From Ctenosaura bakeri (taxonomy: Eukaryota; Chordata; Lepidosauria; Squamata; Iguanidae): 64,000 nucleotides of DNA. The stretch is from assembly GCA_948474755.1 (NCBI GenBank), contig CAOLHI010000561.1, positions 496,001-560,000 of the forward strand, written 5' to 3'. Positions 5,329-33,900 of the stretch are shown here, in pieces; positions within the stretch are counted from its first letter, which is position 1, and the number at the start of each line of letters is the position of its first letter. The position numbers and the translations under genes are program-made. The notes under the pieces are model-generated. The model saw only the letters and a list, made by a program, of their open reading frames with translations. It was not told the DNA's origin and did no database searches.

Positions 5329-5331
5329 TAT

Positions 5332-6852
5332 CACTATCCAGATTTTGGAAATAAAAATAACTGTGGGATTATTGGTATATAAACTGACTCTTTGGGGAAA
5401 GTCCTATAAAAAGAAAGTGCAACATAATTGCTGAAGCTGCGTACTTCTGAATGGGCAATCATATTTTGTTATGTATAACACAACCAGTCCTTTGGTGCCA
5501 TATCTTGGAGGCTGCAACCTTCTGTGTTTACCTACTGCATTAAGTAACTTGTTAGTGTGACTGCTGGAACCTATCAGGCTTGGTGCAAAGGTTGCCATCA
5601 TTTACATGCCTCCCAGCACTTACCTCTGATCTGAGTCTGCTACTGATTTAAGAATTCATTACAGTACTGTGGCTGAGTTCATACTTATAAGGATTGGAGT
5701 ACCAACTAGTGGCAATTGAAATTGTGTAAAAATTGAGGAGAACATCTAGAGTTTTAGACTGGGGCCCATTCCGCTCGAACTATACTTTGTGGGGATGAAA
5801 CCCTGTGTTCTGAGTTTTTGTATTGCAAGCCATTAGCAGCAGTACTGTTTTCAGTCCTACTGCATTGGAGGAAAAAAAACTACTGCTGTTGAAATCATGC
5901 TGCCAAGTTCTGATTCAAGGAACAAACAGGCATGGATCCCCTCAGAGGAGGATTTCTTAAGCACTCCAGTAAAAGACACTTCATGAAGCCATTTAGGAAT
6001 AGGACAAAATGAGGTATCTTTACTGGTAGCCTCTGCAGTGTATTCAATCCTTCTTGTCTGGATGTGGGCCTGCACAACCAAGCCAAAGTGTGGATGCATG
6101 CATGGAAGGAAGGTTATAAGCAAGGACATTGCATAACATCACTGTTGATCACAGGGCAATTCTCTTCTTAAGGCTTCTGCCAACATGAGAACAGACTTAA
6201 TTCTGATACTGAACTGACAGGTTTTTGATTATGGAATATGTGTGTGTATTGTGTTATGCCTGTATATGTAAAATCTACTGAGAAGACCTCACAAGCTAAT
6301 CCACAGATAATTTCTCCAATAATTTTTTTTAAAAGCTAATTGGATAGGGCAATCTGTTCCTTATTGAAATCACCCTTATGGGGAAAAACATCCATAAATC
6401 TTTCTCTGGGAACAGAAAAACAAGACATCCAAACCACTGATGACCAAAGTCTTGACCCTGCCAAGACCTCTTGGCTTGAATGTGTTCCTCATGCTCCCAG
6501 CTCAACAGCCTGGTATGTTCTGTTTGGTGAAGTCTCACTGAAACTCCAAATTAGGTTGCAAGTTCAATACACTTTTGGCTCATTTTGCAGGACGTGGAGA
6601 TTTAGCACCATCTGTTGGCAAATTTCTCTCATAACAGCTGCTGCTTTCAAACAGAGTATGGAGGGGGGGTAAGAAGATGATCATTTGATTTTCACTAACC
6701 TTTGCAAGCTTTCAGGTGCCATGAGACATTCTGTCAAGCCAAAGGGACAAGTTGCTAAATCTTTCTCAAGTGAGGACATCTGTTTATACATGCAGTACCT
6801 CAGACAAATCCTGACTCTCCTACAGAACTTGGAAAATTTACTTTTTAGACTA
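5332..6852. other. Stretch without recognised gene
   Basis: Unremarkable AT-rich sequence with short chance frames only. A GT-rich patch lies near 6240. Nothing else is supported. Confidence 0.5.
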
Positions 6853-11159: not shown

Positions 11160-11399
11160 TATGAGTCTGCGCTTCTTTCTAGAGAGCGCTGTCATCTCGG
11201 GAAAACCACATTTTTCCACCACTGAAAGACGAAAGCCAGTTTCACAGAAGAAACTGAAGACTCGTCTCAAGATGCTAAAAAGATGTTTGTTTTTATTAGT
11301 TAAAAAACAAAAGCCCCACGCCTTTCGGCTCCCTATTGACTTTTCTTATGGAAGCATCCCTTCAGCATCTGGAGACATTTCTCTCCAGTATCTTCTGCG

Positions 11400-12249
11400 G
11401 ATTTCATTGGAGGCCCCCTAGTTGCGGGGGCGATGAGACAGGGCGGGCGGGACACCCTCCAGCCACTGCACCCAACCGAGGGGAGCCGGGAGTCCCGCTC
11501 CCGCGCTCCAGCTTGGCTTTTCGGCGCGGGGCTCTGGCGCGCCCTCCTTTCCACCCGGAGAAGGGGGAGCCGGAGGCGAGCGCGCGGGGGGCGGGGCTTC
11601 CCGCAGGCCCCGCCCCCGCGGGCTTTCGTGCGCCTCCGCTTTGTTTAGCCCAGCCCAGTTCAGCTCGGCCGGGCTGGCGGGCCGTGTGATTGACGCGGAC
11701 CAAAGTTATCCCGGAATAAAAGACAGCACGCATGTGCCATCACACCGGATGTGAACAGGCTGGCTTGGCTCCCCTCTCCATCACTCTCGAGCTGGCTTTG
11801 CCTATTGATGTGCATATGGCCCTTTCCGCACTGGCCTGTTATAGCGCGATGATTCCACTTTCAACCTCCTCTGCAATCCTGGGGTTTGCGGTTCCGGGAG
11901 GGGCCGGCCTATATTAATATATTTAATGGGGGCAGCCGTGCCAAAGCGGTCTAATCGGGGCTGAGCCCTTGGTAGCCGAAGCGGGGGTGGGAGAGGAAGC
12001 GGGGAGGGCGAGGGATGGCCGCCCCACCGCCCTAGCCGCGGCCCCCGGGCAGAGCGCGAAGCCCCAGCAGTCGCACGCCTACGCTGACCCGGGTCCAACC
12101 CGCTCTAAGAGGGTCTAAGCACGATCTGCCCTTTGGGGTTGCGTTCTTTGCAGTCTCTCCTTTGCACCCCTTTTCCTGGGGGGGGGCCGAGGTGGAGGCT
12201 CTGGAGAGCTTTGGGATCTTTGGTGGGAGGGAGTCCGCGCGAGGCCGGG
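11400..12249 (+). promoter_or_regulatory. CpG-rich candidate promoter and 5' leader of ACCS
   Basis: This stretch is strongly GC- and CpG-rich against an AT-rich background, with GC boxes around 11588-11620, a CCAAT-like ATTGA near 11690 and an AATAAAAG TATA-like word near 11714. It runs into exon 1, whose ATG at 12250 has G at -3 and G at +4. A polypyrimidine tract ending in AG at about 12143-12152 could be a splice acceptor, so an upstream non-coding exon is possible. A one-armed MITE (11818-11909) lies inside. The transcription start cannot be fixed from sequence alone. Confidence 0.55.
11818..11909. mobile_element. One-armed Harbinger-like MITE with intact TAT duplication
   Basis: Only the left arm remains (GGCCCTTTCCGCACTGGCC.. 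to ..TTCCGGGAGGGGCC), followed directly by a terminal GGCC. TAT flanks both sides (11815-11817, 11910-11912). The duplication survives although almost the whole right arm is gone, so the loss happened within the element or before insertion. Confidence 0.75.
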
Positions 12250-12910
12250 ATGGATTTCCGAGGGAAGAAGTACGAGCGGGGCAGCAACTGGTCGGACCCG
12301 GAGGTGGTGGAGCTGCTGCACCTGTGGGCGGACGAGGCGGTGCAGGCGGAGCTGGAGAGCTGCCTGCGGAACCAGCACGTCTTCAACCGGATCGCCGAGG
12401 TCCTGCGGGAGAAGGGCATCCACCGCACGGGCGACCAGTGCCGCGAGAAGATCAAGAAGATGAAGCTGGAGTACCGGCGGATCAAGGACAACAACAAGGC
12501 GCCCCCGCGCGCGGGACGCACGTGGAAGTTCTACGAGGTGATGGACCGGGTCCTGGCCAGCCGGCCCGCCCTCGCCTACAGCGCCGGCAGCAGCAACGGC
12601 GGCGCGGCGGCCCCCCAGGGGCTCCCGGCCGGCGTCGGGGAGCCCTACCGCCACCCTCTCCCCCTGGGCCCTCCCGCTGCTCTGGCGTTCCCGCCCTCCC
12701 GGCCCCCGGAGCTGATGGAGATCAAATGCGAGGAGGTGGACTCAGAGGAGCAGTGCCTGACGCCCGAGCCCCCGCCCGCCCTCCTCACCTACCCGCCGGG
12801 GGGCTCGGCCGGGGAGCGCGAGATAGAGAGGGCCCTTTTGGAGAGGTCCCAGAATGACTCCCCCGTCTCCAGGGTGGAGGTCCCCCTGGAGACCAGTGCC
12901 TCGCCTTCAG
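12250..12910 (+). CDS. ACCS: ACCS exon 1: trihelix Myb/SANT DNA-binding domain
   Basis: Encodes residues 1-220 plus one base (phase 1 donor CAG|GTAGGA at 12911). The domain has the spaced tryptophans of Myb_DNA-bind_4/trihelix proteins (W14 in GSNWSDPEV, W26 in LLHLW, W92 in TWKFYEVMD) and the helix-3 pattern RTGDQCREKIKKMK. Similar domains occur in MSANTD proteins and in ZSCAN20/ZSCAN29, and Harbinger transposons encode related Myb-like partners. A proline-rich linker follows, with an acidic MEIKCEEVDSEEQ motif at about 157-169. No in-frame ATG lies upstream, which supports the 12250 start. Other long frames here are shadows of high GC. Confidence 0.9.
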
Positions 12911-15900
12911 GTAGGACCGCCTCCCCTCCTTAGGCCAGTGGGCTGGGGGAAAGGCCAGTTCCGCACTAGCCTGTTATAGCGCGATGATTCCACTTTCAAC
13001 CTCCTCTGGAATCCTGGGGTTTGCAGTTCCGGGAGGGGCCCCTCCCGGAACTGCAAACCCCAGGATTCCAGAGGAGGTTGAAAGTGGAATCATCGCGCTA
13101 TAACAGGCTAGTGCGGAAATGGCCAAAGTCACTTGACTTTGGGGACTACAGCTCCTAGAATTCCTCATCCAGCATGGCCACTGGCGAGGCTGGCTGGGGT
13201 TCTGGTAGCCCCCAGCAGTTGGATTCCCCAGCTTAAACCAGCCTCTTCTCAACTTCCGAGTAGGGCGAAGTTCACACACCTTATTGAGTTACCCTAATGA
13301 GGGGAAGGGAGACTATTAAGGGTTCTGTTCTTCTTACCCCATCTTCTTACCCCATTACTGTTACCCTAATGAGGGGAAGGGAGACTATTAAGGGTTCTGT
13401 TCTTCTTACCCCATCTTCTTACCCCATTACTGTTACCCTAATGAGGGGAAGGGAGACTATTAAGGGTTCTGTTCTTCTTACCCCATCTTCTTACCCCATT
13501 ACTGTTACCCTAATGAGGGGAAGGGAGACTATTAAGGGTTCTGTTCTTCTTACCCCATCTTCTTACCCCATTACTGTTACCCTAATGAGGGGAAGGGAGA
13601 CTATTAAGGGTTCGGTTCTTCTTACCCCATCTTCTTACCCCATTACTGTTACCCTAATGAGGGGAAGGGAGACTATTAAGGGTTCTGTTCTTCTTACCCC
13701 ATCTTCTTACCCCATTACTGTTACCCTAATGAGGGGAAGGGAGACTATTAAGGGTTCGGTTCTTCTTACCCCATCTTCTTACCCCATTACTGTTACCCTA
13801 ATGAGGGGAAGGGAGACTATTAAGGGTTCGGTTCTTCTTACCCCATCTTCTTACCCCATTACTGTTACCCTAATGAGGGGAAGGGAGACTATTAAGGGTT
13901 CGGTTCTTCTTACCCCATCTTGACTCCAGAAAGTGCTTCACTCCACATCCCCCCCTTTTGCACAGAAGCAGATCTGTGTTTGGCTCCCAGCCTCTTGCAG
14001 CCAGTGGTTAGAATTCCTCAGGAAGGAACTTACCACCACTAATTGCATTTTCCCAAGGAATAATAGCCCTGCTTGCCTGTTATAGCAAAAGCCACTAAAA
14101 CATCCTCTGGTACCTGAAATGCTAACACATTTGTTGTGACATGAACTTTTCTGGACTATAGCTTGCTTTATGATGGTTTAAGATAGCAAGCCAGCAGAGG
14201 GAATTAGGCAACCTTCCAGATGCTGAACTTCAACCCTTTTAGCAGCCCTATGTCTGGAGGGCCGCACAGTTCCCATCCCTAAAATAATTTTTTACCAGTT
14301 GTCAACTCACACAGCAAAAGCATGGTTTTTGACCCTGTGTGTGGTGAGTGCAACAAAAAGGGACAAAATTTATTGTGCTGGCTGGAGGCCTAGTGGGCAG
14401 AGATGTTACCAGTAGCAGATGATGGGTGTACCCGGGACTTGATACGAGCCAGCATTTCCCAGGGTTCAGCCCTGGAGCTAAAAGCTGATATATTTTCCTG
14501 AACCTGCTGGTTTATTCTGCAAATAGAGAACAGAAAAGCACATTTAGTTTGCCAAACTGGTTCACTTGGCAGGTTGCAATCTGATGGTTCCCATATTGAA
14601 ATGGAAGTCCTGTTGCTTCTCTTGCCCGTTCCCATCCTTTCCTGCTGTTCTGTTTACCCGGAATTATACTCACAGTAACATGTGGGGCAAAGTGTAGTAA
14701 AAAGTACCATGTGAAACATAAGCTAAGACAGACTTGTCTTCTGTTTCAGCCATAGAGATAACAATACTGGGAGAGGATTCTTTTCAAATTATATAGCAAC
14801 TTTCTCTGCAGATTACTTCCCACCCAGTGTAACATAGGCTAGACTCTGACTAGGTTCACATGGCAGTTCCATACCTTCCAAAATTTTATGTAGAAAAACT
14901 GGGAAACGTGTGGTAACCAACATCAAAATATGGTCGTGATGACAAAAGTTAATAATGAGGAAGAGCAAACAGGCCAAAAAGGGCTGGAGCAATTTGCTTT
15001 TGCCTGAGATACTCAGAAGAGTAGAATTCTGCTGATTTAACTGAGTGAAAACTGTCTTTGTACTTTAAAGTCAATCTGCAGCAAGTGAAGTAAGCTGTGG
15101 GGAAAGGGAGAAGAGGAAGGGGAAACTAGGACATTTGCAAAATAGCTGAAAAAGTGGAAGGACAGAGGATTAATTGGGAGTGTTCCTGCCAAATCAAGAC
15201 AGTTGGAAAGTGTGCAGTTCTTTAGCTACAAAAGATGTATCAGCTTAGATTTTTACTTTATTTCAGGCCTTACTGGTATCATAATCTGTAAGAGAAAGTG
15301 GTAAAACCAGAATATCTAAAAGTGAATTTTTGGTTAAATATAATTGTTTGAAACAGGTATGGCAGGAAAATTAACGCCCCTGTTTACATTATCTTAAAGA
15401 TCTGTTATTTTTTTAAAAAATTTAAATTTTTTTGCTGTATTAGGACTTTCAATGATGAAGTCTGCAACTATTTCACTGAGTCATTCATAGTTGTTATGAC
15501 CATTTCATCATTTGGTGGCCAGTCTTTTGGTGTTGAGATCGACTTAAATTAGGTCTAATTAAAATTAAAATATCCAGTTTTTACACAATGTAGCATGATT
15601 TCACTTTATATTCAAATCAGTAACACAGCAATATTTATCAAAACAATATTTGTTCCTCAAATTATAAGAAAAAGATTAGGTATAAATGGTTGTTATAAAG
15701 AACTATGCAGAAAATCTCTAAACTGCACATAGCTGCCACTTACATTTTTACCTGCAAAGCAAAGGTGAGAAATATCTCAAAGGCACATTGTTGTTTTTGT
15801 TGTTGTTGTGCACCTTCAAGTAATTTCTGACTTATTGTGACACTAAGGCAAACCTATCACAGGATTTTCCTGGTAAGATTTGTTCAGAGTGGGGTTTGCC

Positions 15901-18900
15901 TTTGCATCCCTCTGAGACTGAGAGAAGAGTATAACTTACCTAAGGTCACCCAGTGGGTTTCCATGGCTGAGTGGGGATTTGAACCCTGGGCCATTTCCAC
16001 ACTAGACTGTTATAGTGCTATTATTCCACTTGCAACATCCTATGGAATCCTGGGGTTTGCAGTTTTTGGAGGGGCCAGGCGGCCCCTCCCGAAACTGCAA
16101 ACTCCAGGATTCCATAGGATGTTGCAAGTGGAATAATAGCGCTATAACAGTCTAGTGCGGAAATGATCTCGGTTTCCAGAGTCATAATCCAACACTCAAA
16201 CCACTACACCATATTGACTCTCATGTTAAAGGCACTACCTACTGTTAATTTAAACAGCAACTATCAATCCTTTTTTCCTTTTTTTCCCCAACTTATCCAT
16301 TACTTTTGATTCTCTAATATTTATAGCAAGTCAGTAAAAAAGACTAAGGTACCACATGATCCATTATTTGGAGTTGTTCATAATTGTAACTGCAGGGTGG
16401 CTGGGACTGTAATATCTCTGAGTGTCTGAAGACCCTTCATGGCTTAGCTCCTGTAACTAGTCTCTGTACTGAATAATGTGTGGAAGGGCTGCCATTTTGC
16501 GAATTGGCCAAAAAAAAAAAAAAATCCATCTGGGAAGTGCACATCATATCCTGTAGCATAAAAAGGAGGAAAGGAAGGGGAGAAAACAAGAAAAGTGGCA
16601 GCACATTTAAGATTAACTGGTTCTTGTTTCAGCATGAGCGTTCGTGGCTATAAACCCATTTCGTCAGATGCGTTACCTCCTTTTCTCCTTTTATGCTGCA
16701 AGAGACAACACAGCTACTTCTTTGGAAATCATATTCTGTAGTTTTTGTAGGCAGAACAGTGGATGAGTTGCATCTGTGTGCCTATGTAGTTTTTTGCTTT
16801 CTGATAGATATAGTTAAGAAAACAGACCACGTTTCTTGGTATCTGCTAGTGGACTAATGGATTTGCTTTCTGATTATACTATGGGCAGGTCTGGATAAAA
16901 GAGGGCAGCAGGTCAGGCATGCAAAGTCTGACCTTTGCCAAGAAATCTAAGATGACTGAAATTAATTGCTAGAGATGGTTTCTTTTTCTGTCTGCTTTTA
17001 GGTTTCAGTGAGCCCAATATGGCTTCTTCCTCCCGGATCCAAAGTCTAGGACCCCGGCCTGGTTTTTCCACTTTGCACCACTTGCGGAAAAAGCGGAAAG
17101 CCCAACGGCTGAGGGACCCCCTGGATGCGCTCTTGCTGAAGACCCTGACTGCACAGCGGGAAATGGAGGAACGCTTTCTGCAAATGGAAGAACGCCGACT
17201 CCAGCGTGACCTGGAGGTGGAGGAGCGGCGGATACAGCTGGAGCAGCGTCGTTTTGAATTGGAACGGGACCATGAATTCCGCATGTTCAATGTCTTTGCC
17301 CAGATGCTCAGCATCTTAAAACAGAGCAATAATGGCTCTTCTGCAAGTGGACAGCCTCAGGGTGTGGAGCTTAGTCAAACTTTTTCGGAAAGCACAGGAG
17401 TAGGAGAACGGGTACAGGAAGAAGGACAGACCTCACAGCTAGCACGACCCACTTTGGGCAGGACAATGAGTACATACAGTTTCTGCAACTCCGGCAATTT
17501 CCAAAGCAGCCCCTACCTCTCTGTCCGAGGCAACATTGCTAACATCTGCTGGGGCTCGGCAGAAGAGGGTTATAGTGCCTATCATGCTGACAAGTATGAT
17601 GAAGACAAAAATCCCACTGTGAGTGAAAGTGTTTTTGTTACATGTCTGAAATAATAATTATCGTTTTGTTGATCAGTCATATTATTTATTACTTGCACAC
17701 TGATTTAGGAAGCAACAAAAAGGGGCAGGTCTCTACTACCAGGCAGCTACATTTAAACATTTGATTTAATGTTGCTGTTTGGCGTGGAAGGAAGGGAAAT
17801 GCAGTTGTGAGGCATTGGTTGGGGCAGAGGTTGAAATGGGCAGAGGTTGAAATCTTCCAGCTCAGAGATATGCTAGCTGTAGCAGGTTAGAAATAGGCAG
17901 AAGCCTCTTGTGCCAGCCAAACTGGCCTTCTGTCAGCATAAACATCTTTCTGCTGGCTGATCTCAGAGTTCAGCAAGCAGAAATACTTGCCAGCACAATC
18001 ACTCTACAGGCTAAAATCAGTTAGCAAAAGGGAAAAACATGGGGAAGGTGGAGTGAGAGAGAAGAGATATGCCAGATCCCAACAGCCCCCAGACACAGCT
18101 AGTATGCTGGCACAAAGTTAGGCCAAGTTAATGATAGCCCTAAGTAAAATCTGCAGATGCCTGGGAAGAATTTGGATTCATCTCAGCTTCTGTTGACCTG
18201 GTGTCAGCTGTGTTCTAAAGCATAAACTCACTTGGGAGTGAGCCTCTTTTAACTTGATGCCATGCAGTTCCAAGGAAATTTGTATACTTTTGAGCTGCAA
18301 GGGATTAGATGAAAAGCTCCATGGGAAAAAGTGGGTTTGTGGAGATTTAAGAAAGAATGCCTTAAGAAAAACATTGCTTCTTAGTTCCTTGGTATATATG
18401 GTTAGCAACCATTTCTTTTAAAAATAATAGTAAGCGGGGGCCGGACTTATTTTCATTGGGACCTCAAATTCCCTCCCCTCTATAATAGTTACAATCACAA
18501 TATAATTCTCATTGATACAGCTGGGAGCTTCTCCCCATCCTCTGCTAACAGTGACAGTTGAGAGGAATGGTTTTCACCCAGATTGTGTCTGGGGAGTGAA
18601 TGATATAACTCTCTCCTCCCTGCACAGTGCAGTCCTGAAAATCAAGACTAACACCATACATTGTTGCTAACCACATAATTAAATTAATATTGGTTTTGGC
18701 TGTAATTGTAAGGAACAGATAGAATCATCATGCTCAAGAGGGGCCTAACATGCACTACTTCCCCAGCAAAGTCACCATTACATAGGCTCTTCCTAAAACT
18801 TGTGCCACAGTTGACTTATCTTTGTGTCTCTGGATAGCTTGCCTCATGACAGTGCTAGTCCAGAAAGGCCTGGCTATATGTTATAGTAGAACTCTTTGTT

Positions 18901-21900
18901 TTACTTCTACTCCCATTGCTGAGAATTTGTTCTGAACTAGAGGATTTAAAATTTTTTTTAAAATCCTCCAGTTCACACAGGGCATGCTTATGAGAACGCT
19001 TAACTCTTTTTCTATGGAACATGATTTTTGAGATAGCATTGTGGGAGGTCAGCTAATGTTGAAGACATATATGTGCAGAGATGGATTATTTGCTTTCACA
19101 AAACCTCTGTGTCTGTCTTCAGGGCATCATTAATTTTGGCACCAGCGAGAATAAACTTTGCTTTGATTTGATGTCCAAGCGGGTAAGAACATTTTAAATG
19201 CATTTCCAGATCAAGCTTGATTTGATGTTCATTCACATTTTAATTTTGACACTAGTTGGTCTTTTTCTTTTCTGCTTGGGTAGCTTATGAACTTGCCCCA
19301 TTTTTTGGTTTGGTGGGGAAAAAATGGTATCTTTCTATAATTGGTAGCTGTCAACTCATTGATCCACTATATCTCTGTTAAAACTGTGGGACAACTTCCT
19401 GCCCTGTTTCCTTCCCTAAATCTTTACTCTTTCCCTCTTCTCCTGTAGTAGGTATGTTTTCAGCTTTTCCTGGAGCAAATGGAGAAAACAATAGGCAAAG
19501 GAAATAGTGGAGGATTGAGACAGGAGGCTTGGTAGCTACCTCCTTTAAAAAAGAGCAGCACACATCTCTGACTGACCTTCCAGCTATTTTGAACTCCAAT
19601 TCCCAGTGGTCCCCAACCAGCATAGCTAGTGGTCAGGGATTCTGGAAGCTGAAGTCTGGAACATTTGGGGACTAATGGCTGAAAAGTGCCGGACTTAAGA
19701 ATAATTAAATTGTAGCGTGAAAGGCATTGTAAAGCTAATCAGTTGCATCTCCCAAGCATAATACTTAATCCTAACCTAGAATTCCTTATAGAAAGGCAAG
19801 AGTATTTTTGTTATCTTGGTAAATTTTCTTTAAATGAATGGGATTTGCTTCAAATTTCAAACGGTTGGTGCTTGATGTGGGGCATCCTTCCACTGGGTAT
19901 CATGCAAATTTAATGCTGCCATAATTTGCCATTTGTGGTGATATTCTTGTTCCTATGAAGTGAAATGCTACAGAGGGCTTGATGATGGAGATAAAATTGT
20001 GATTGTTTGGGGGCTTTCTTGCTAGGATTACATGTGTGCCTTTTGAAGAATATGTAAGAAGAATACACTCCAGCTAAAACCGGGAAATGTTAACCTAAGT
20101 GTTAGGTTTTGTTGGCTCATGCTTAGCTTTCCGTTTCTAAGGACTTCCTTAGTGACTATTTCCTCTCCTTCTCATTGCTGGTAGTTAACACAAAGTGACA
20201 TGAATGTCATAGAGCCTCCATTGCTACAGTATCCGGACTGGAAGGGCCACATGTTGTAAGTATGCTGTGCCCTGAACCTTTATGAATGTGTACATCCTTT
20301 TTACTCCATCTATGTAAATTAGATAAGGGGAATTATTATTATCATTATTGCAGAAATTCCTTTAAAAAATTAATGGGTGGAGATTGATAGCACTACTAGA
20401 AGTGACAAAGGAAATGTGACTGATTATGGTGGCAGTGGTGTATAAGTACTTTGGAAAGGAAACACACACAGAGTATGAAGAGGATGACAGAGTTTACTAA
20501 ATTATGACACGTGAGAAAATAATTGACTATTAAAGGTTGACATATGGAGCATTTGAGTAACAGAAATTTTGTCAAAATAGTTCATCTGTTTAATAATAAT
20601 CTATATCTAAGCCCTGGGCTTGATAAAGTCAAAACAGGACTACCCGAGAGAGAGCTGTCACCTGGCTTGAAGGTTCTCAGAAGTACAAGTTAATGACCAC
20701 CCCTCCTTTCAGGATTTGATGAATGGGAACCCAAAAAAAGCCAAGTGAAGATTGGACATGCTCAGAATAGTTAGTATCTTTTGGATGGGGGAATGGTTGG
20801 AAAACCAACATGGTGGAGAAATAGAATGGAGGGTACTGTTGTTAATATACCTTCAAGTTAACTCTGACTTATGGTGGCCCTTTCCTAGGGTTTGCTTAGC
20901 AAGATTAATTCAGAGAAGGTTTGCCATTGCCTTCTTCATAGGCTGAGAGAGTGGGACTTGCTCAAGGTCACCCAGTAGATTTCCATAGCTGAGTAAGGAT
21001 TTGAAACTTGATTAGCAATTTTATACAACCACCCCAATTTTAAAGAGATTTAAAGTATAAAACATCAGAGCTCACCTTTTCCAGGCTACAGACATGTGCA
21101 GATGCCCTCCAAAGAGATCAGAAGAGGCAGCAATTTCTGATCTTAGAAGGCTTAACTGGAGTGAGCTTTTTTGCCATTAGACAATAGTTCCTCTTCAGAA
21201 GAGTACAGAGACAGAGAGCTAATGGTAAGGACATTGTTCTGCTTTGTCTTCTCCAGCAGGCTTCCCAAGTGGAGAGAGCACATCAGGGGAGAGAGAGGGA
21301 CAGACATCTCCTGCTGGATCTTCTGCAGCAGTTGCAGAAGGCACAGCAGAAGAGGTTGCACATCTCCTGTACAGTAACCAACTGCACTAAAAAAAAAGCC
21401 CCTTCTCCCAAAAGTCCTTTACAAAATGCCCACAGATTTCTCTCTTACCACTTAGTCCTGGATGATAAGCAGGCTTTATGATACCAGAAGGTTCTTTGTC
21501 ATTTTTACTGCAGTGTGCTTAGCAGAGTTACCTGTTTCAGCATTGTTACCATTACCCTTTTGCTCTTTTCCTATCCCAACTCCTCCATCTAAGCAGGCAG
21601 AGGAAACTCTTACCTCCAGCTACACTAAAACTCCAAGATTCCAATTTCTTTCTTCTCCTCACACATTCCCTTCTAAGAAGTCAAAGGAAACCCCTTTCTT
21701 CTGGCAATGCCAAGACTGCAGTTGCTCACCCCCTCTGCAACTTCCCCAACCTAGGCAGGTAAAAGAAACCCAGTCAAGTCACTTATTCTTATGCCAAAAC
21801 TCCAGTACACTCTCATCACTCTCATGCCTCTCCTTCCTCGCTCAAATGCAAAGGGACACTGGCAAAGCTATGCATTGTGAGTGAGATTTTCATTTATTTA

Positions 21901-24900
21901 TATATTTCCTGAGAAAGATTGTAAATCTGAAATGTTGTTAAATGGGGGTGATATAAACTGAGGCCTTTTTCTTCAAGGCCTCAGGTGGTAAAATGAAAAA
22001 GAACAAGAATAAGGGATGAGTGTGGCAATTTTGTTAAAGCACAAAAGAAAGTAAGAGCAGAGCTTAGATAATGAGAATGAATAGAACTCCCTGTATAACA
22101 AAGCTGTAGGGACTTTTGGTGCTGAAGCTCCAAAAGGTATCTTTTAAAAAGCCTGACTGTAACAATATGTTTGTTAGATATTAGAGAGCTGGACTGATAC
22201 AGTGGTTACAATGCTGTCTGGGAGAGAGAAGAACCACCTTCACAGCCCCAAGTAGCCATGAAGCTGTTTGGATGACTTTGGCCAGTCACTGCCTCTTAGT
22301 CTAATTTCCCTCTTGGGAAAAGGCAAAATATCAATAGAATAAGTAGAAGATGGATGGAGTAGAAACAGGGTTTGAAAGAAATATGTAGTTACTGAGGAAG
22401 TGCTCATCTCACAGTTTGAACTGGTGCAGGCAAGAACATAATGTATTTTTGTCCAGCACCAGCTATAGGGATAAGCAAGCCAAAAGGTAAGCAAACCAAA
22501 GCCTTGGGCACTAAGCCAAAAGGTGTGTCAACCTGAGCTTGGTCTTTGCTGAGTGTACTCTAAGCAGTGAGTTAAGCTGGTAGGATGTGAAAGAATTATT
22601 TTTCCCACATGTCGTTTGGATGCTACATTCAAAAATGGAGTTACATCAGTTACCTTGAAAGCTTGTTCCTTTCTTTAATATTAAGTTTAATGTCATTTAT
22701 TCTAGATAAAACTCAGCAGAATGTGACTTTACTTTGAGACATTGTTAGAAAATACTATAATTATTGCTGCTAAGCACCATGGAACATTGCAGATGCCACA
22801 AACACTATAAGCACTATAAATACAGTTGGCCCTCCCCTTTCAGTGGTAAAACCATGAATCTCTAGGTTCCCCCAACACGAAAAGTAGTTGTGCTGGTGGG
22901 ATGGGTGGGTTCACCTATTTGCATGTTCCTTTGCATACACACTTACCAGGCTGGGGTGAAGGGTATGGGATGGAGAAGCAAGAGAAGGGAGGGTGGATAG
23001 TATGCAGGTCTCTAGAGTAGTTGGGAGGGGGGAATATTGCCATGAGAGCAGCTGTTGCAGGCCCTTGCAACTGCCCTTTCTTTCCTCCCACTGACTTCTA
23101 AGTAACTATGCCTTATATTTACAAAAACACACTTTCTGGCTTTGGCTGACTAGGTAGTGTAGTAGCAGCTATTAAAAGACAGTGAGCAGGTTTTCTGCTT
23201 GGTGCAGTAATGGTGTTGTTTATCACAAAACCTTTGTGATCTTCTATCGTACAATTCTAGAGGGGAGCCAAGTCTTGCAAAAATTAATTCCATGCTGTTT
23301 TGTCTCCTTCAGCTTGCGAGAGGAAGTGGCTCGATTTTTAACCTATTACTGTAAGGCACCTGCACCTCTCAAAGCAGAAAATGTAGGTCAACCTTCTTTC
23401 TAGTTTGTTTGTTTTTTCCCCTGGTAAAGTATTGGAGTTCATTGTGAATAGTTTTTTCTAAAGATGGCTATTTGTCACACCAAACACTGAAAAGCCATTT
23501 TGTAGCCATTATATTGACAATTGTGAGCATTAGGAGGGCACTCTTGCTATGTCTCCCTCTATATTGTCCCCATGGAAAAAATAATGAAGGAATATGAAGT
23601 TCATGCCCTAACTAACTAAGTTACATTATGTTGATGCTGAAATAGATATCTCTGAGATATGTTATTCGTTTGTGATGTTTAATGGCTATTTTTAGGATAC
23701 TTTGGTTAAATGCTTTAGTTTCTTTTTAAAATTCTTTCTAACTCTAAACCAGATTTGTAAGCCAACCCTCAGAAATTGTTAACCTGCGTCCCACAAATGG
23801 TACTAGCCTGCTTGAATTTGGGAATGGAGAGATAGAAGCCACATAGCCATGCTGGTAGAGTATCTGGCTCTGTCCTTTTTACTTACTGGGAATAACATTT
23901 GGCCCTACGTGTCTTCTGCAGGTGGTCGTGCAAAATGGCTGTGGCTCTCTGTTTTCTTCTTTGGCTACAGTTCTCTGTGATCCAGGGGGTAAGTGAAATT
24001 GCTTGAACAATTTGACACATAAATGTATTAGCTGACAACAAAGGATGGACTTTGCAGTCAACAGCGATGACGATTTTCATACTTATAATAGCATTTCTCT
24101 CACAGTTTGTCATGCATTTTTGCTTGTGTGTGATACAAGATTATTCATTGTTGTTGTTGGTGGTGGTGCTGCTGCTGCGTGCTTTCAAGTCATTTCTGAC
24201 TTATGGCAACCCAAAAGTGAACCTGCCATGGGGTTTTCTTGACAAGATTTCTTCAGAGGGTGTTTGTCCTTGCTTTCCTCTGAGGCTGAGAGAGTGTGAC
24301 TTGCTCAAGATCACCCAGTGAGTTTCCATGCCTGAGCAGAGATTCAAACCCTGGCCTTCAGAGTCATAGCGCAACACTCAGACCACTACACCATACTGTA
24401 TATCCACTAAACAGTCCCTGTTTTAATCTGCCATAGGTATATCTAAAAAAAAAAGTCCATATTGGCTGTCAGAATAATGCCAAAATATATACTAAGATAA
24501 TACCTTTATTATTAGAAATCTGTATACATTGTATTGTTCTTTATCCTTATACTCTGTGTTCCCTTTGGGCTTGTACATATACAGCCCTTACTGCACTATG
24601 GCCCAGTAGCACATCATTGTGGTGGGATCCTGGCATTGCCATTGCCGGGATGGGATTGGGGCCTGAATGCTCCCCACCGCACCCAGTCAGCTACCGGAGG
24701 ATGAGTAGTATCAGGCACGCTGTTCTTCCTTCCACATACAGTATCAATGGCAAATCGCTTTTCCCACCTCTTCCTGCACTATAATGTAGAGCACTATCAA
24801 GCACTTTGACCCTTACTGCATGCCTGCAACTGACACGATCCTGGCAGGAAAGGGGGCCAGTAACAAATTTTTTCCAGTAATGAAAAAGGGTGTGACAGCA

Positions 24901-27900
24901 GTGGATGGGGATGCGACAGCAGTGGGACCACAACAACATCATGTGATGGCATGCATCCTGGACTGGGAGCAACATGTTGCTCTGCTGGGATGATGACATT
25001 GTGTGGTAAGGGCTTACCCTTTTTGTGAAACATGTTGATATCCATTAATTTTGTGATATCAATGTATAAGTGTCTACAGGGCCTGGGATTTTGTGAAGTG
25101 TGGGTTGCAGGAATAGCTCGATTGGATTGCATAACAATAGAAACTCAACCAAATTTGCTAGTGTTAAAATTTGGTGATATTTGATCCAGTAAGTGCTGGA
25201 AAGATAGGGAAGGAACTTATGTTTACTTAGATTTCTTTGAAGCTGGATATGGGTCTTCCTATATAGTTTTTTAACATTGATTTTATTCACTTTAGTACAA
25301 ATTTTTAGGACACTTGAAGTATTAATCTCCAAAAATGATAGGCAAGGAAGTACCAGAGAGATATTATCATCTTTCGCAACACATTTTTGAATCATGTCCA
25401 AAAGGAGAACAAGGTGCATTTTCCTCATCCTTAGGATGAATGCTCATCTCCTTATAAGGATATCCACATGTCCTTTCCTCTAAAGATACAAGGAGTAAGT
25501 GGATAATACTGAGTAAAGTATCCTCTCTCACCACTTTTAAAGAATGTCTGGAGTGCCCCTTGGAGAAGATGATTCCCTTATTGGTTTTTAAACATATGTG
25601 CCAATTGGATTACCGATTGGCTCACTGAATTGTCTCTCAGCGGTTCCCAAAATCTCTCCGTTTGCTCTTCGCCCTTATTTCATATTGCTAATTGTGTAAT
25701 GTTCTTGGATGTAGATCAAAAACTCGTCTCCAGTCTGAAACTGGATTCAGTGAAAAATGTGGGTTCTCCTGCAGCACTGGTTAACTGGCTTTATTCTTTT
25801 GCTTTCAGAAGCATTCTTGATTCCCTCCCCTTTCTATGGGGGCATCACCCAAAGTATGTTTTTGTATGGGAATATCAAGCTAGTCCATGTCTATTTAGAC
25901 AGTAAGGTAAGAGGAGAGTGGGTAGTTACCACATTGTGTAATCCTCTGGCTACGAATCTTGGGACTTGGGACTCTACAGATGTTGGGAGTTCCTGTCATG
26001 GGGAATATTGTGGATGTGTTGCTGAAACTGCTAGTAAAGGATGTTAGAGGCAGTATTGCATGCAAGAGCTAGCGTCCTTTTAATGGCATACACAGATGTA
26101 AATTCACCTAACACTTCTGTATGTCTTTTTTTTAGTTGTTGCAAAGGCTGATATTCCCTTTCACCCTCTGCAGTGACCAACTCCCCCATTGACCACTGAA
26201 CTGCTGCAGCCCCTCCCCATGGCCATTTTGTGGCTGTTGGAGAGCAAGGAGGATCAGAGAAGTGGCTTGCTATGTCCCTTTGGTCAGATGCAAAATGATT
26301 ACTTCATTTGCTGAGGCCTCAGAGAATCTCTCCAGACCTCAGTGAATGATGTAATTATTCTGTGTCTGGCCACACAGACATAGCCAGACACTTCTCTGTT
26401 CCCCCACCATCTCTGTTCCCCCCACCATCTCTACCATCCATGGAGTGGCCATGGGAAGGGGGCTGCAGCACCTCTATGGTATGTTCAGAAGGTTTTGAAT
26501 GGCCAGTTGTAGCGTAGTTCCATGTGTGGAATTAATATAGTACCCTGTGCCACGTATAGGATCTTGTCCCAAGTTTGTTTAGTTTCTGGGATAAGACGGA
26601 AATTATGCTTCTGTATCTTTTTGATAAGAAGCTTATCAACCACTACCATAGATGTTTGTTGGATGTTAAAAGGGATCTAGGCCACATTGATATGTAAGGA
26701 ATTTGGCAAAGTACATTTAAATGTACTATATACATACATATACATACACATACATACACACACACATGGACACATACTATCATTTTTATAACCTATATGC
26801 TTTTCTCTACTTTTGTTCTGGGTAGAACTATGAGAATGAACCTTAATTGATAGTTATAGTGACATGAATCCTATTGTTAATCTAAACTAGAACAAACCCT
26901 TTCAATCAATGGAATTTACCTACATGTTGACTGATTCAATAATTGATTCAACTGACTGCTTTAGTTGGAATTAATCAACAGAATTCAGACCATAATCATA
27001 TTATAGACTCATTCTTTGACAGATCACTCTAAGAATCTTGATTTTATACAAATATGCAGAACCATGGCTGAGCTTCTTCCAGTGTGAAACAGCAATAGTT
27101 CTTGTTTGGTTCAGAAAAGCTGTCATGGGGAATCATTCATTGTATTGTTTGGTAATGTTCCAGGTCACTGGCACGTGCACCCGTCCATTCCAGCTCACTG
27201 TGGATAAGCTCAGAAAGGCTTTTCAAGATGCACAGTCTGAGGTGAGCATGAGAGATCTTACAGTTGCTGGATCTACTTCCACAAAACACAACTGGAATGA
27301 TTCATTCACTTGACAATTGCCCATTTTGAAGGCAGTTATTTTTAATAAGGAATTAGCATTGCCTCACTTTTCTGCATTTTTCTTCCTTCTGGCTTCACTG
27401 TTTATAATTTCCTCTCCATCCAATTATGTATGTGTGTATATATGGATATATACATACACACAGAGCACGTAAGTTGTAAGATAACACTCTTTATGTTTGA
27501 TGATGTGGGCTGTGGTCTACAGAAATTTGTGCTATAATAAATCTATTGTTCTTTAAGAGGCCACAATACTTTTCACTGTTTCCAGTTACAGAGGGCTACT
27601 ACATTTTACAGACCAAACTCCCCCAGGATAAAGAGGTTTCTTGACAGGCTGTGCATTATGTTTGAGCTCTTGAGTTTTGTATGAATAATTTTTTAACATA
27701 TTTTGATTTTCTTTTTTTTTCTTTTTTCTTTTTGCTTCTAGGGGATCAAGGTGAAGGGTTTAATTCTTCTGAATCCACAGAATCCCTTGGGGGACATCTA
27801 TTCTCTCTCAGAGTTACATGACTACTTGGAATTTGCCAAAAGGTATGATGATCTCAGAAGCTTGATTGCTGAAATTTCTGGTTTGACAGTCAGATGGAGC

Positions 27901-30900
27901 AAATACTTTTTCCAGGCTTATCTGTTTGGAGTATACATGTGTGTTGTATGTATTTACTTAGACAACCTTAGGGTGAATCTATTTGCCATTGCCTTCCTCT
28001 GAAGCTGAGAGAGTGTGACTTGTTCAAGGTCAACCGGTGGGTTTCCATGGTTGAAGCAGGAATTTGAACCCTACCCTCATCTTCCAGAGTTTAATCCAAC
28101 ACTCAAGCTACTATACCATACTGGCTCTCTGTTGGAATATTTTGGTGCAGTACAAATAACTTAGTTGGACTGATATAATTAAAAGTAAAAGTTTCATATC
28201 CTGGGCAGAGAAAATCTCTAGAAATCTTTCCTGTTAGGGCTGCAACTTCCATTAGCACTTAACAGCACAGGCAATTGTGAAAATTGGTGCGAGTTACCAT
28301 TCAGCAACATCTAAAGGACTTTGCCAACTTTGCCCTCCATACCCAACCGGTGCATCTCACTGGCTTTATAATTGGTTGAATAGTCTTCATTGATTTTATA
28401 GATTCTAGCTACTGTTGAATATGATAAACCCCTACTCTCAGAACTAAGCATTGCCTCATTGAGAGTGAACATCATGGTGAACAACAATAGCACAATCACA
28501 GTGGCAGCACAACCATAGTACCCCAGCATCACATTCTGGAAAAAGCTGTCCAGTTAAGAATACAATCAACAGAGCACTGTGTCCTTAGTTGAACAGGGGC
28601 AGGGAGGTGGGAGATTTGAAGGAAGTAGAAGGGGGAACACCAAGCATATTCAGGAGAGGAGTTCTTGATATAAAAGGCAGCAAGGAAAAATGTGAAGTAA
28701 ACCTCCATGTGTCTAAGAGTGATTGAACTGGAGGAGCAAAAGTGGGGTTGAATTGCTGGTTTCCATCCCAGTAGATTGTGATATTGTTTTCTTTGTAGGA
28801 GGAACTAGCTATTCAAGGGATAATTAGACCAAAGCTGCCTTCTGATTTGATCAGTGTGTCAGAAGAAAGGAATTATTTATCAGGGAAACTTGATGTCTAT
28901 AGAGGTTTTCCTGTAATGAGAGGCTGTAGCTGACAGCTACAGTAGCTGATAGATATGATGCTTTAGCTCCTTTCTTGCTCTCTGATTTGGGAATTATTTT
29001 CCCATACAGCTCCATATTCGTGTTTCCAGGTACCCAGTAATCTCACTACCCATTGCTGAAATTGTTTCCTTTCTTTTATTGTCTTCTGTTCTAGGCATGA
29101 ATTACATGTGATTGTGGATGAGATCTACATGCTGTCAGTCTTTGATGATTCTGCCACGTTCCATAGTGTGCTAGAAATGGAGAGGTAAAGCCAGTTTCAG
29201 TGCTTTAGTAACCCATTGACAGTTGCCAATAATGTAAAGTTTGGTGAAAAAAGAAGCAACACTGGGTAAACCTCATTCTGGCAAAGACTGCTTTTCAAAG
29301 CTTCGCAAGGCCCTCTCAGGTCACAGCGTGGCAGCTTTTGTGGGAGCTGATGTGATACATTCCCTTGTAATTTGGGAATAAAATGCTTCCTGTGCTTTTC
29401 CACTAGAATATTCAGGGATTTCAAAACATGGCTTTCTAACACCACTTCTCATCACTTTACAAGAATAGCTCTTTTGATCCTTAGGGGAGAAGAAGACTAT
29501 TGAATTAGCCTTGACATTTATTTGCAATTACATGGTGTTTGTTTCAAGAGCTTCCCATCCCATGTTGAACATGGGTGGGAACTATGCAGCTTTCCAGATA
29601 TCACTGGGCTATAGATCCCATCAGCCCTAGCCAGTTGTGAGGAATGCTGGGAATTGCAGTTCAACACCCATGTAAAGGGCTACACTCTTCTCACTCTTGT
29701 GTGAAAACAGTGCAGCCTGTGAACTTGTGTGTGTGTGGTCACAGGACCCTTGGAGAGCCAAATTAGACTCTCCATACATGTAAACAGCAGTGGGGCAGCA
29801 GTGGGGATGGGGTAGGTGAGAAGGTTAATTCTTTCTCTCCCTGCTTTGGTCCTTCTTCTTTTAAAGAAAGAAGTCTGCTGTTTGTATTTTCAATGGCAGC
29901 TTTCAATGTAATGCAAATATTATATTACTATTATTTATCATTGCTGCACATCACCTTTCCCCCAGTAAGTTTAAGGTGATGTGCATGACTCTCTTCCTCC
30001 ACACTTTATCCTCACAACAGTCCTGTGAGGTAGGTCAGGCTGAGAAAGAGTGACCACTTCAAAGTTTGCTGGTTAGTTTTATGTCTCACTGGGGACCTGA
30101 ATCTCCCACATCTCAGTTCAGCTGTCTAACCCGGAAACCATACTGGTTGGCATAGCAGCTGGAAGGACTATTCCACAGGGAGAAAAAGGTTAAATATTTC
30201 TTTACCATCCATAGCCTACTTGGGATTTTCTGTATTTATACAACAAATATCAAGTTATTTTGGCCCCTAAAATGATATTTTATTATTTTTTTAAAGAGCA
30301 CAGTGAGCATATAATGCCCACTGGAGATTAAGAATGAAATTATAAATGAAATGTTTAAAAAATGCATTTAAGATGGTACTCCCTGATAGATTGGCAAGAA
30401 TGTATAAAAATGTCAATAATAAATGCTGGAAATGCAAAGAAGAAAAAGGAACATTCTACCATATGTGGTGGAATTGTTCTAAAGCCAAAAGATACTGGAA
30501 AACAATTCATTTGCTGACAGAGAAATTCTGGGCATAAAATTACAAAGGGAACCAGAATGATATCTGTTGGGTATAATGGATGAGAAAATAGAAAAAAATA
30601 TATGGGAAACTGTTATTTTATGTAACTCCTGGGCCTAAAATTATGTATGCTAAGAATTGGAAACAACCCGATATACCTAATGAGGAAGATTGGTTAATCA
30701 AACTTCTAGATATGACTATAACAGATAAATTAACTGCTTTAGTAAGAGGAACATTGATGGGCTCTTTTAGAAAACCATGGGACCCTTTAATCTATTATTT
30801 AAGAAACAGATGAGGAATCCTAGCAGTAGAGAGTTTTACAGAACTGGACTTAAAATGGGGATACTGCATAGATACATCTTTTAAGAGATTAGAGTAAATA

Positions 30901-33900
30901 TTTGAATAAGTTGGTACATCTGAGCTTTTATGGAACTAAAGGAAGATATCTCTTTTAAGATAAAGATCAGACTAATTTACATGACAGGTATATTTGAAAT
31001 GAGAACCTGTCGAGTTGTTTTATTTTCCTGTGGTGATATGTCTGTTTTTGTTTTTGCTTTTTTTTTCTTTCTCCTTTCTGATGTGTGTGTGTGTGTGTGT
31101 GTGTATAGCTTGTTATATTCTTATTGCTATTTTTGTCCTATTTTATATACATAATTTTTATTTATAAAAATCAATACAAAAAAGGAATGAAATTACTGTT
31201 TTTGTTTCCCTTATGTGCAGATTACCTGATCCACAGAGGACCCACGTGATGTGGGGAACTACTAAGGTGAGTGCTGTTTCCTCATGTTGAGGTGGTACAA
31301 GAAAAAGAGTAACAAAATAACAGTTGGATCAAAAGAAGTATTCATGTTATATTGTATGATTATTTGTTCTACTCCACACTGGCAGGATTTTGCTATTTCT
31401 GGGATTCGGTTTGGAGCCCTGTATACACTGAATCAAGATGTCACCAGTGCTGTTGGTTCCTTGTGTTACTTCCATGGGATTTCTGGGCCTGTCCAGTACA
31501 AAATTGCACAGCTACTCAGAGACAGAGGTAAGACGCAGGATTGTCATGGGACTGTCAGTATTCTAGTCTTCCTGAAAGGTGACCTTTGCTAAAACTGCCA
31601 CTCTCCAGAACACAGTGGTTCTTAATGTATATTCCATGGAACCTAAGAAGGCCCCTGGAAGAGTTTCATAAAGTTTGTGAAGCAGGTGCAGTAAAACTGG
31701 TTTTTGCTTGATTTCCTTCCTATTTCTTTTGGGGAAAAAATTGTAAATACATTTTTCTGGAGAAAGGGTCTATAGTTTTCCTGAGATTGTCAAAGGGATC
31801 CATGACTCAAAAAAGGTTAAGTGCCATGCCTCTGGAATCTCAGTATATATATGGAGGATGATTGGAAATTTAACAGAGCTCTAAATTTAAAATTTAAAAA
31901 GGGGTAATGCTGCATTCAAATATAAAATAGATATATTCATTAAATCCTGCCCATATGCACACAAATGCTTGAAGAGGGAAGCAGGTTCATGCTGTAGGCC
32001 TTATCTCCAACTTTTTTTCATTCACTTGGATGTATGAAAGGGCTCCTTTTCCATATATGGCTGCAACACAGGGCCTTTCTGCGCTACACTGTTATAGAGC
32101 TATTATTCCACTTTCAACATCCTGTGGAATTCTGGGTTTTGTAGTTTACTGAAGCCAAAGAGCTTTCTGCCTGAGAATTCTAAATGCCTCTCCCTAAACT
32201 GCAAACCCCAGGATTCCATAGCATGTGGAATGTGGAATAATAGCACTATTAACAGTGTAGTGCGGAAAGGTCCACAGTCTGGAACTGAACTGCACCTGGT
32301 CAGGGACGCCTTTCAGACTTCCTTGCAAAAGGCGTGGATACCACAAGAGTACTGCCAACTGGTGTACTGATACTTGTGGCGGGTCCAGGAAGGGTAGCCT
32401 TGCTCTCATTCTCCTTGTGTTCAGTGAATGAACGGAGAGACCCCTCTGTGTTGTACCAGAGTAAAGTCAAATGTGCATGAAGAGCACTTTTTAAAGGCTG
32501 TCTTTGTACATTACATCTCTTTGTGTACACCTAAATCAGATAAAATATGAATGTGGGCTATGATGGAAATTCTTGATGAATTCCTTATCCATTGGCTGAT
32601 TCATACCTGTACATCCCTCGCTCCATGATTATCCAGGATGGTTTGCCTATGCAAGTGGATTGTCACAGATCAGATACAACTGGTAGAATTTGCCCATTGC
32701 CTTTGTTGTTATTTGCCATCAAGTTGACTTTGACTTGAGAAACCTCCAACAGACGATGTCATCTACAGCTCTTCTAAGGACTTGCAAACTCAGGGATGTA
32801 GCTTGATTGAGTCAATCCACCTGTAGTGCAGTCTCCCTCTTTTTCTACTACTTTCCACTTTACCAAGTGTTATTTTCTTAGCCAGTGATTCACACCATCT
32901 CCTGATATATGCCTTACTTAGTCATCTTTACTTCTAGTGAAAAATAAAACTTGATTTGCTCTTAGACCCATTAATTTGTCTTTTTCATAGTCTATGCTAT
33001 CTGTAGAACTCTGCTCCAGCACCACACTTCAAATGAATTTATTTTCTTCCTGTCAGCCTTCTTCACTGTCCAGCTTCACACCCATGCATAGAAGTCAGAA
33101 ATACTGTGACCTGGATGATTCTGGCTTTGGTATGAGAGAAATGCCTGTTACATGATAACTTCTTTATAAACCAAATGAAGAATATGCAACTACATACATG
33201 TGTAAAGTAATTCTTTACCTACAATGTGATACTGTTCAAAGTAGTCTCCATCAGTGGTGATGCATTTGCATCACCTTTGAACCTCCTCATCAAATCCAGT
33301 TTGGAAAAACTCTTTTGGGAACTCCCTGGTCCAGTGTCTGATAGCATCTTCCACTTTGCCTACATCATTGAAGTGCTGCCCCCAGAGGCTTTCCTTCATC
33401 CAACTGAACAAATGAAAGTCTGAAGTTACCAGATCAGGGCTGTAAGGTAGATATGGCACCACTGATCATCCCATTTGTACAAGAACCTGTGATGTTGCCA
33501 AAGTGTGGTGTCATGCATTATTGTGGTGTAACTGGATTGCAGTCAGTATTTTATGTGGTCCTTTTTTAATACCTGGCTTCTTGAAGTTTTTGGAAAGATG
33601 CAATATAGTAATTGCTGTTCATTGTTATCCTATGTTCAAGGAAATCAAGCCAAATCACCCCCTTGTCATCCCAGAAGACATTCACCATAATCTTTGCCGA
33701 GCACTGGCTTTTGAATTTCTTTGGTTTAGGGGAGATGGAGTGATGCCATTCCTTGGACTGATTCTTGGTCTCTGGGTCATACAGGTATGCCCAGGTTTCA
33801 TCACCAGTGCAAACATTCCCAAAAAAGGTGTCCTTGTTGGTTTCAAATTCTGCCAAAGTTGGAAATGCATTTCTCTTTCAAATCACCTATTAATTGATGT

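What the first reader, a model, noticed from the sequence alone, without database searches (positions are those of the whole stretch)
12250..17618. In-frame fusion of a trihelix Myb/SANT DNA-binding domain and coiled coil to the ACCS enzyme
Seen: exon 1 ends in phase 1, exon 2 accepts phase 1 without a frame break, and exon 2 carries basic region, coiled coil and the first ACCS block in one open frame. All 15 exons sum to a multiple of three. Known: mammalian ACCS begins near the SAEEGY block with a short unrelated N-terminus. Inference: in this lineage, or ancestrally, ACCS is the enzyme half of a probable nuclear DNA-binding protein of 898 residues. I am not aware of a description of this architecture.
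Basis: partly seen in the sequence, partly recalled or inferred. Interest (0 to 1): 0.88.

Follow-up and report, generated by a model that had tools for sequence, protein, structure and literature searches.

The report
DNA-binding domain fused to ACC-synthase enzyme
In this lizard the gene ACCS has one reading frame for a DNA-binding-type domain, a predicted coiled coil and a vitamin-B6 enzyme, the same architecture is annotated from sharks to marsupials, and placental mammals appear to have lost the DNA-binding part, so the protein is likely a metabolite-responsive gene regulator of which the human proteins would be headless remnants.

Summary
The 15 exons join into an 898-residue frame: trihelix domain (PF13837, E 8.5e-22), predicted coiled coil, ACC-synthase-like PLP domain (PF00155, E 9.4e-57). 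The same architecture is annotated in squamates, turtles, crocodilians, birds, monotremes, marsupials, amphibians, coelacanth, lungfish, ray-finned fishes, sharks, rays and chimaera (122 of 188 fetched proteins carry the domain). Six sit on 2.8-3.7 kb contigs, too short for an unspliced gene like this one. The DNA-binding domain evolves three times slower than the enzyme, and in two ray-type proteins it is intact although two active-site arginines are replaced. None of 16 eutherian clusters among 120 listed rows carries it. A tree puts one duplication in therians: ACCS lacks domain and coiled coil; ACCSL is whole in marsupials and keeps a decayed coiled coil in eutherians. Bacterial MocR/GabR regulators are the closest working model, built from different parts. 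DNA binding, ligand and targets are untested. Databases hold the architecture; ten paper searches (open-licence PMC, listings capped) showed no description of it.

The parts
12250..12910 (+). exon 1: start codon, trihelix/Myb-SANT-like domain, acidic/proline-rich linker; donor GTAGGA
12283..12549 (+). PF13837 Myb_DNA-bind_4 (residues 12-100)
   Evidence: mean pairwise identity of residues 1-100 is 89.7% across 28 aligned proteins
12721..12732 (+). I-K-C-E, a SUMO-acceptor-like motif ([IVL]KxE), residues 158-161
   Evidence: present in 28 of 28 aligned proteins; function inferred
17002..17618 (+). exon 2: basic motif, coiled coil, linker, first enzyme block; acceptor TTTTAG
17085..17099 (+). 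RKKRK basic motif, likely nuclear localisation signal (residues 249-253)
   Evidence: [KR]4 in 27 of 28 aligned proteins (not Sarcophilus P0081); role inferred
17118..17324 (+). coiled-coil helix (residues ~260-328, placed by one-residue offset from P0002)
   Evidence: AlphaFold2 model of P0002, helix 259-327, block pLDDT 74-85 over residues 261-320
19123..19182 (+). exon 3 (enzyme; SENKL motif)
20185..20255 (+). exon 4 (enzyme; PDWKG motif, Trp465)
23313..23382 (+). exon 5 (enzyme)
23922..23988 (+). exon 6 (enzyme)
25809..25906 (+). exon 7 (enzyme; Tyr525)
27164..27241 (+). exon 8 (enzyme)
27742..27842 (+). exon 9 (enzyme; NPQNPLG, Asn588)
29095..29184 (+). exon 10 (enzyme; DEIY, Asp616 and Tyr619)
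31221..31266 (+). exon 11; its last codon is the predicted PLP Schiff-base Lys653
31386..31527 (+). exon 12 (enzyme; Arg661)
34492..34634 (+). exon 13 (enzyme)
38781..38934 (+). exon 14 (enzyme; PGWFR, Arg787)
43211..43509 (+). exon 15: end of enzyme, variable linker, conserved helical C-terminal tail (residues ~851-898), stop
11251..13000 (.). CpG-island-like 500-base windows over exon 1 and its upstream flank, likely promoter; none at exon 2

Best explanation
The 15 exons form one open frame that joins a trihelix DNA-binding-type domain, a predicted coiled coil and an ACC-synthase-like PLP enzyme, and the product likely works as a nuclear DNA-binding regulator whose paired enzyme halves would sense an amino acid or PLP. 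Shown: the frame and splice phases, the domains, the same architecture across jawed vertebrates, the slow evolution of the DNA-binding domain, and its absence from the eutherian proteins listed. Inferred: the protein dimerises through the PLP fold and coiled coil, is imported through RKKRK, sets two trihelix domains on paired DNA sites, and changes DNA binding or partners when ligand or PLP occupies the enzyme half, as bacterial MocR/GabR proteins do with an unrelated DNA-binding domain. Inferred history: a therian duplication gave ACCS, which lost domain and coiled coil, and ACCSL, which kept them in marsupials and lost the DNA-binding domain in eutherians.
For: Gene model and Pfam. Both domains in 87 of the 120 rows listed (410 hits in all), from reptiles to sharks; teleosts; 122 of all 188 fetched proteins carry the DBD. 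Six DBD-bearing proteins come from contigs of 2829-3666 nt, whereas introns total 28,563 nt here, so those contigs are likely spliced transcripts. Relative rates: DBD 0.23, enzyme 0.70, coiled coil 0.77, tail 1.33, linkers 1.36 and 3.2. Mean pairwise identity 91% in the DBD core versus 69% in the enzyme. Ray-type P0102/P0103 have His and Ser for Arg661 and Arg787 (P0103 also Gln and Phe for Tyr525 and Tyr619), yet DBDs 99-100% identical to two sharks. 153 of 188 have all nine reference active-site residues and 186 of 188 the Lys. Closest solved structures are plant ACC synthases, by sequence with the turtle ortholog P0006 and by fold with the model of P0002. CpG-island windows lie over exon 1, not exon 2. 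Tree; coiled-coil relic in eutherian ACCSL, score 42.5 versus at most 16.8 in 60 column shuffles. 0 of the 16 eutherian clusters listed has PF13837.
Against: No DNA binding, nuclear localisation, PLP binding or transcript of this species was tested. Several species have annotated isoforms that join other first exons to exon 2 at the same junction, and some models start at a methionine in exon 2, so part of the output may be a DBD-less enzyme. The enzyme keeps its catalytic residues in most proteins outside rays, so a mainly enzymatic role with chromatin targeting remains open. DBD constraint is not uniform: the core is 79-92% identical to the window in teleosts and 90% in Anolis. The [KR]4 motif is broken in Sarcophilus. 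A trihelix domain can also serve protein binding. Two losses in therians rest on an AU p of 0.027 against a single loss, with the group named after the tree was seen. Column shuffling destroys heptad periodicity, so the relic test does not exclude generic coiled-coil likeness.
Confidence: 0.55

Rival explanations
1. Chromatin-tethered enzyme: the trihelix domain brings an active PLP enzyme to chromatin, where it makes or consumes an amino-acid-derived metabolite; catalysis, not sensing, is the function.
For: All nine active-site columns match the reference in 153 of 188 proteins; strong similarity to plant ACC synthases.
Against: In two ray-type proteins the arginines aligned with plant active-site positions are replaced while the DBD is unchanged; the DBD evolves three times slower than the enzyme. 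As recalled, not seen here, human ACCS made no ACC in published assays.
Confidence: 0.25
2. Two products from one locus: a DBD-bearing regulator and a separate enzyme isoform from alternative first exons, with little coupling between the halves.
For: DBD-less isoforms with distinct first exons joined to exon 2 are annotated in turtles, a caecilian and others; therian ACCS exists as a DBD-less enzyme.
Against: Full-length models recur in the jawed-vertebrate groups listed, and the coiled coil lies in exon 2, shared by both forms.
Confidence: 0.15
3. Annotation artefact: exon 1 belongs to a neighbouring gene and gene predictors joined it to ACCS.
For: Read-through gene models occur at this locus in eutherians (camel ACCSL-ACCS; ACCS-EXT2 models in whale, monkey and lynx).
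Against: Same frame and junction region from lizard to chimaera, contigs of 2.8-3.7 kb that hold the full frame, and an aligned coiled-coil relic in ACCSL.
Confidence: 0.02

Closest known systems
Bacterial MocR/GabR regulators (GntR family; passages of PMC6677901 and PMC5320631 seen; PMC6917764 abstract start only)
   Same: N-terminal DNA-binding domain joined to a C-terminal fold-type-I PLP (aminotransferase) domain; described there as chimeras; characterised ones bind PLP and control transcription
   Different: DNA-binding domain is trihelix, not winged helix; a long coiled coil and a C-terminal helical tail are added; vertebrate; PLP half is closest to ACC synthase; no regulation shown
Eutherian ACCS and ACCSL
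   Same: related enzyme half; ACCSL keeps a decayed coiled coil, ACCS a stretch like the one after it
   Different: no trihelix domain in the 16 eutherian clusters listed
Plant ACC synthases (PDB 1iax, 1m7y, 7dlw)
   Same: fold and main catalytic residues
   Different: stand-alone enzymes; the tyrosine of plant QDYHG is tryptophan here, 28 of 28 aligned proteins
Other trihelix-type loci in this lizard genome
   Same: same kind of domain (found by protein similarity)
   Different: the best-scoring one is 40% identical and none of the 149 others listed is above 41%; the 19 open frames printed were not scanned for other domains

Membership tests
Trihelix / Myb_DNA-bind_4 (PF13837) | profile match above curated cut-off | tested here: met
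   77.8 bits against 27
Trihelix / Myb_DNA-bind_4 (PF13837) | helical bundle with conserved tryptophans | tested here: met
   helices between residues 17 and 102 in the model of P0002; W14, W26, W92 in 28 of 28
Trihelix / Myb_DNA-bind_4 (PF13837) | sequence-specific DNA binding | not testable with these tools
   needs SELEX, PBM or ChIP
ACC synthase / aminotransferase class I-II (PF00155) | profile and fold | tested here: met
   193.3 bits; for the model of P0002, 1m7y first by fold, E 2.6e-33
ACC synthase / aminotransferase class I-II (PF00155) | PLP lysine, Asp, Tyr, Asn and two Arg | tested here: met
   present in the window; full set in 153 of 188; two ray-type proteins lack both Arg
ACC synthase / aminotransferase class I-II (PF00155) | plant active-site Tyr of QDYHG | tested here: not met
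   Trp465, 28 of 28 (aligned with tomato ACS2)
ACC synthase / aminotransferase class I-II (PF00155) | makes ACC from S-adenosylmethionine | not testable with these tools
   assay needed; so ACC-synthase-like, not called an ACC synthase
MocR/GabR regulators | N-terminal DNA-binding-type domain plus C-terminal PLP fold-type-I domain | tested here: met
MocR/GabR regulators | GntR-type winged helix | tested here: not met
   no GntR family among matches up to E 1; PF13837 instead. Analogue, not member
MocR/GabR regulators | PLP- or ligand-dependent transcription control | not testable with these tools
   assay needed
PIF/Harbinger-derived Myb-like proteins | descent from the transposon's Myb-like ORF | not tested
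   considered as origin of the DBD only

The most novel reading that the evidence does not exclude
Jawed vertebrates carry their own, independently built counterpart of bacterial MocR regulators: a trihelix transcription factor with an ACC-synthase fold as its amino-acid/PLP sensor, in which sensing outlives catalysis (rays), and of which human ACCS and ACCSL are beheaded descendants.
Probability: 0.35. Interest if true: 0.92.

Novelty: new variant of a known kind. Interest (0 to 1): 0.76.

Why it matters
From recall, the function of the animal ACC-synthase homologue has been a puzzle. If the ancestral protein is a DNA-binding regulator, work on human or mouse proteins looked at truncated remnants and could not have seen it. 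The question becomes testable in Xenopus, whose full protein is listed (P0088), and in fishes and birds, whose relatives carry it. It would also be a eukaryotic transcription factor that uses a PLP-enzyme fold as sensor, paralleling MocR by convergence.

Tried and rejected
Lizard-specific fusion: rejected. Gene-prediction artefact: rejected as above. Unrelated mammalian N-terminus: rejected by alignment. A second intact copy in this genome: not among the 52 scored matches (of 1126 candidates); one degraded ACCS-like stretch without DBD. Single loss in therians: disfavoured, not excluded. Downstream EXT2: a few recalled motif strings not found in the window, which does not show absence of the gene. 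Paper searches (all ten) cover open-licence PMC papers only., aimed at the fusion, returned 0 papers. The others were seen as listings and abstract starts, mostly capped (20 of 52, 20 of 650, 12 of 42, 20 of 20, 15 of 134, 10 of 26, 8 of 72), and one search was swamped by an unrelated abbreviation; no title or abstract start described the fusion.

Rows chosen: one search used 28 proteins (the joined window protein and 27 of 188 fetched); alignment A1 used 54 of 188; the tree used 35 rows, with enzyme parts cut roughly, the Thunnus row uncut and its branch long. One search scored one best alignment per protein. One search admitted only proteins of about 577-1836 residues, so ordinary eutherian ACCS of about 500 residues (recalled) were not candidates, and no human protein was examined.

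Full report
Observation. Exon 1 (12250-12910) and exon 2 (17002-17618) join in phase 1, all 14 introns are GT-AG, and the 15 exons give 898 codons and a stop. hmmscan of the joined protein gives PF13837 (Myb/SANT-like, residues 12-100, E 8.5e-22) and PF00155 (residues 429-791, E 9.4e-57). CpG-island-like windows (500 bases, GC at least 0.55, observed/expected at least 0.6) cover 11251-13000, that is exon 1 and its flank; none lies at exon 2.

Breadth. A search with the joined protein listed 120 of 410 hits; 87 of the 120 carry both domains, and by local alignment 122 of all 188 fetched proteins carry the trihelix domain. They include lizards, snakes, turtles, crocodilians, birds, platypus and echidna, the marsupials Sarcophilus and Dromiciops, salamanders, caecilians, frogs, coelacanth, lungfish, gar, bowfin, paddlefish, sharks, a ray and chimaera; one search added teleosts such as salmon, tuna, a medaka and a bonytongue. 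NCBI mostly calls them '1-aminocyclopropane-1-carboxylate synthase-like protein 1' or '2', so the architecture is in databases. The other 66 fetched proteins lack the domain or, as P0170, most of it: partial models, isoforms with other first exons, and therian short forms.

Transcripts. Six proteins with the domain come from a source tagged 'lgn' on contigs of 2829 to 3666 nt (domain check). The introns of this gene total 28,563 nt, so such contigs can hardly be unspliced gene; that they are transcript assemblies is my inference. Predicted DBD-less isoforms in several species splice other first exons to exon 2 at the same junction, and some models start at a methionine inside exon 2.

Constraint. 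Across 28 proteins (27 fetched and the window's) mean pairwise identity is 91.1% in residues 1-84, 68.9% in the enzyme, 60.7% in basic region plus coiled coil, 23.5% in the linker after it. An edge-linked partition model gives relative rates of 0.23 (residues 1-100), 0.70 (enzyme) and 0.77 (coiled coil). Against chimaera, the trihelix core is more similar than the enzyme in 53 of 54 rows, the exception being chimaera itself. Constraint on the core is weaker in teleosts (79-92% identical to the window) and in Anolis (90%). A SUMO-like [IVL]KxE is kept in 28 of 28, a run of four basic residues before the coiled coil in 27 of 28.

Enzyme half. With the turtle ortholog P0006 as query the closest solved structures are plant ACC synthases (1iax, E 1.1e-66); for the model of P0002 apple ACC synthase 1m7y is first by fold. 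Glu435, Tyr525, Asn588, Asp616, Tyr619, Lys653, Arg661 and Arg787 are present in the window; their roles are taken from the plant and aminotransferase literature by recall. Trp465 stands where tomato ACS2 has Tyr. 153 of 188 proteins have all nine reference residues. Of the 35 others, 26 differ only by gaps, seven (P0012, P0033, P0133, P0134, P0143, P0181, P0182) show one substitution, some probably from misalignment or exon-skipped models, and two are ray-type: P0103 (Hemitrygon) and P0102 (unnamed, 84% identical to it in the enzyme) have His and Ser for the two arginines, and P0103 also Gln and Phe for two tyrosines, with DBDs 99-100% identical to two sharks. Whether rays have a second intact copy is not known.

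Structure. AlphaFold2 on a 54-row alignment (first row P0002) shows helices between residues 17 and 102, one helix of 69 residues (259-327), the enzyme fold, and four short helices at the C-terminus, joined by low-confidence linkers; mean pLDDT 64.7, pTM 0.51, so relative domain placement means nothing.

History. One search, aimed at long eutherian proteins, listed 120 of 334 hits; 16 rows are eutherian and none has PF13837; three of them are read-through models with EXT2. In an enzyme-domain tree (35 rows) therian proteins form two clades under one node (100/99): ACCS of marsupials and eutherians (100/99), and marsupial proteins including the DBD-bearing Sarcophilus P0081 and Dromiciops P0109 with eutherian ACCSL (99/94). 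A single loss is rejected at p-AU 0.027, a moderate result with a post-hoc group. N-termini of four eutherian ACCSL sequences match the coiled-coil region of full-length proteins by profile (probability 88%, score 42.5; best of 60 column-shuffled controls 16.8), though shuffling also breaks heptad periodicity. Marsupial ACCS starts inside the old exon 2 in the alignment: MFSILKQ, FYGLGDP and SPYLSSRG in Sarcophilus ACCS stand beside MLNILKQ, FYGLSNP and SPYLSNRG in Sarcophilus full-length protein.

Mechanism. I favour a dimeric DNA-binding regulator with a PLP-fold sensor, by analogy with MocR/GabR, which abstracts and passages describe as chimeras of a winged-helix domain and a fold-type-I PLP domain. 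It fails the GntR membership test, so it is an analogue. The slow DBD and the ray substitutions speak for regulation above catalysis; the intact active site elsewhere speaks against calling the enzyme half a dead scaffold. Ligand, DNA motif and targets are unknown.

Own genome. Exon 1 has one match by DNA; 149 other scored matches (of 473 candidates in all) resemble the trihelix domain, none above 41% identity; no second intact copy of the gene is among the scored matches.

Noticed in passing
G000:C6734:18623-19802 (L022): A degraded ACCS-like stretch without introns in the matched part, about 47% identical to the enzyme half, with in-frame stops and no DBD match; probably an old retrocopy.
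   Followed up: partly
own genome G000, e.g. L003-L021: 149 other scored trihelix-type matches, several as near-identical open frames (L008, L009, L013, L015, L017, L021), suggesting a lineage expansion or a mobile carrier.
   Followed up: partly
window 13288-13921: Minisatellite in intron 1: 72-bp unit, 8.8 copies, 99% matches.
   Followed up: no
window 12953-13124 and 15981-16176: Near-perfect palindromic fold-back elements (99% and 90% complementary arms); their core occurs 11 times in the window with up to 3 mismatches, 0 expected.
   Followed up: no
window 4501-5500: CpG-rich block (observed/expected above 1) with repeats open in several frames; no gene identified.
   Followed up: no
P0129, P0131, P0147 and P0093: Models joining ACCS to EXT2 in whale, monkey and lynx, and ACCSL to ACCS in camel, consistent with a gene order ACCSL-ACCS-EXT2.
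   Followed up: no
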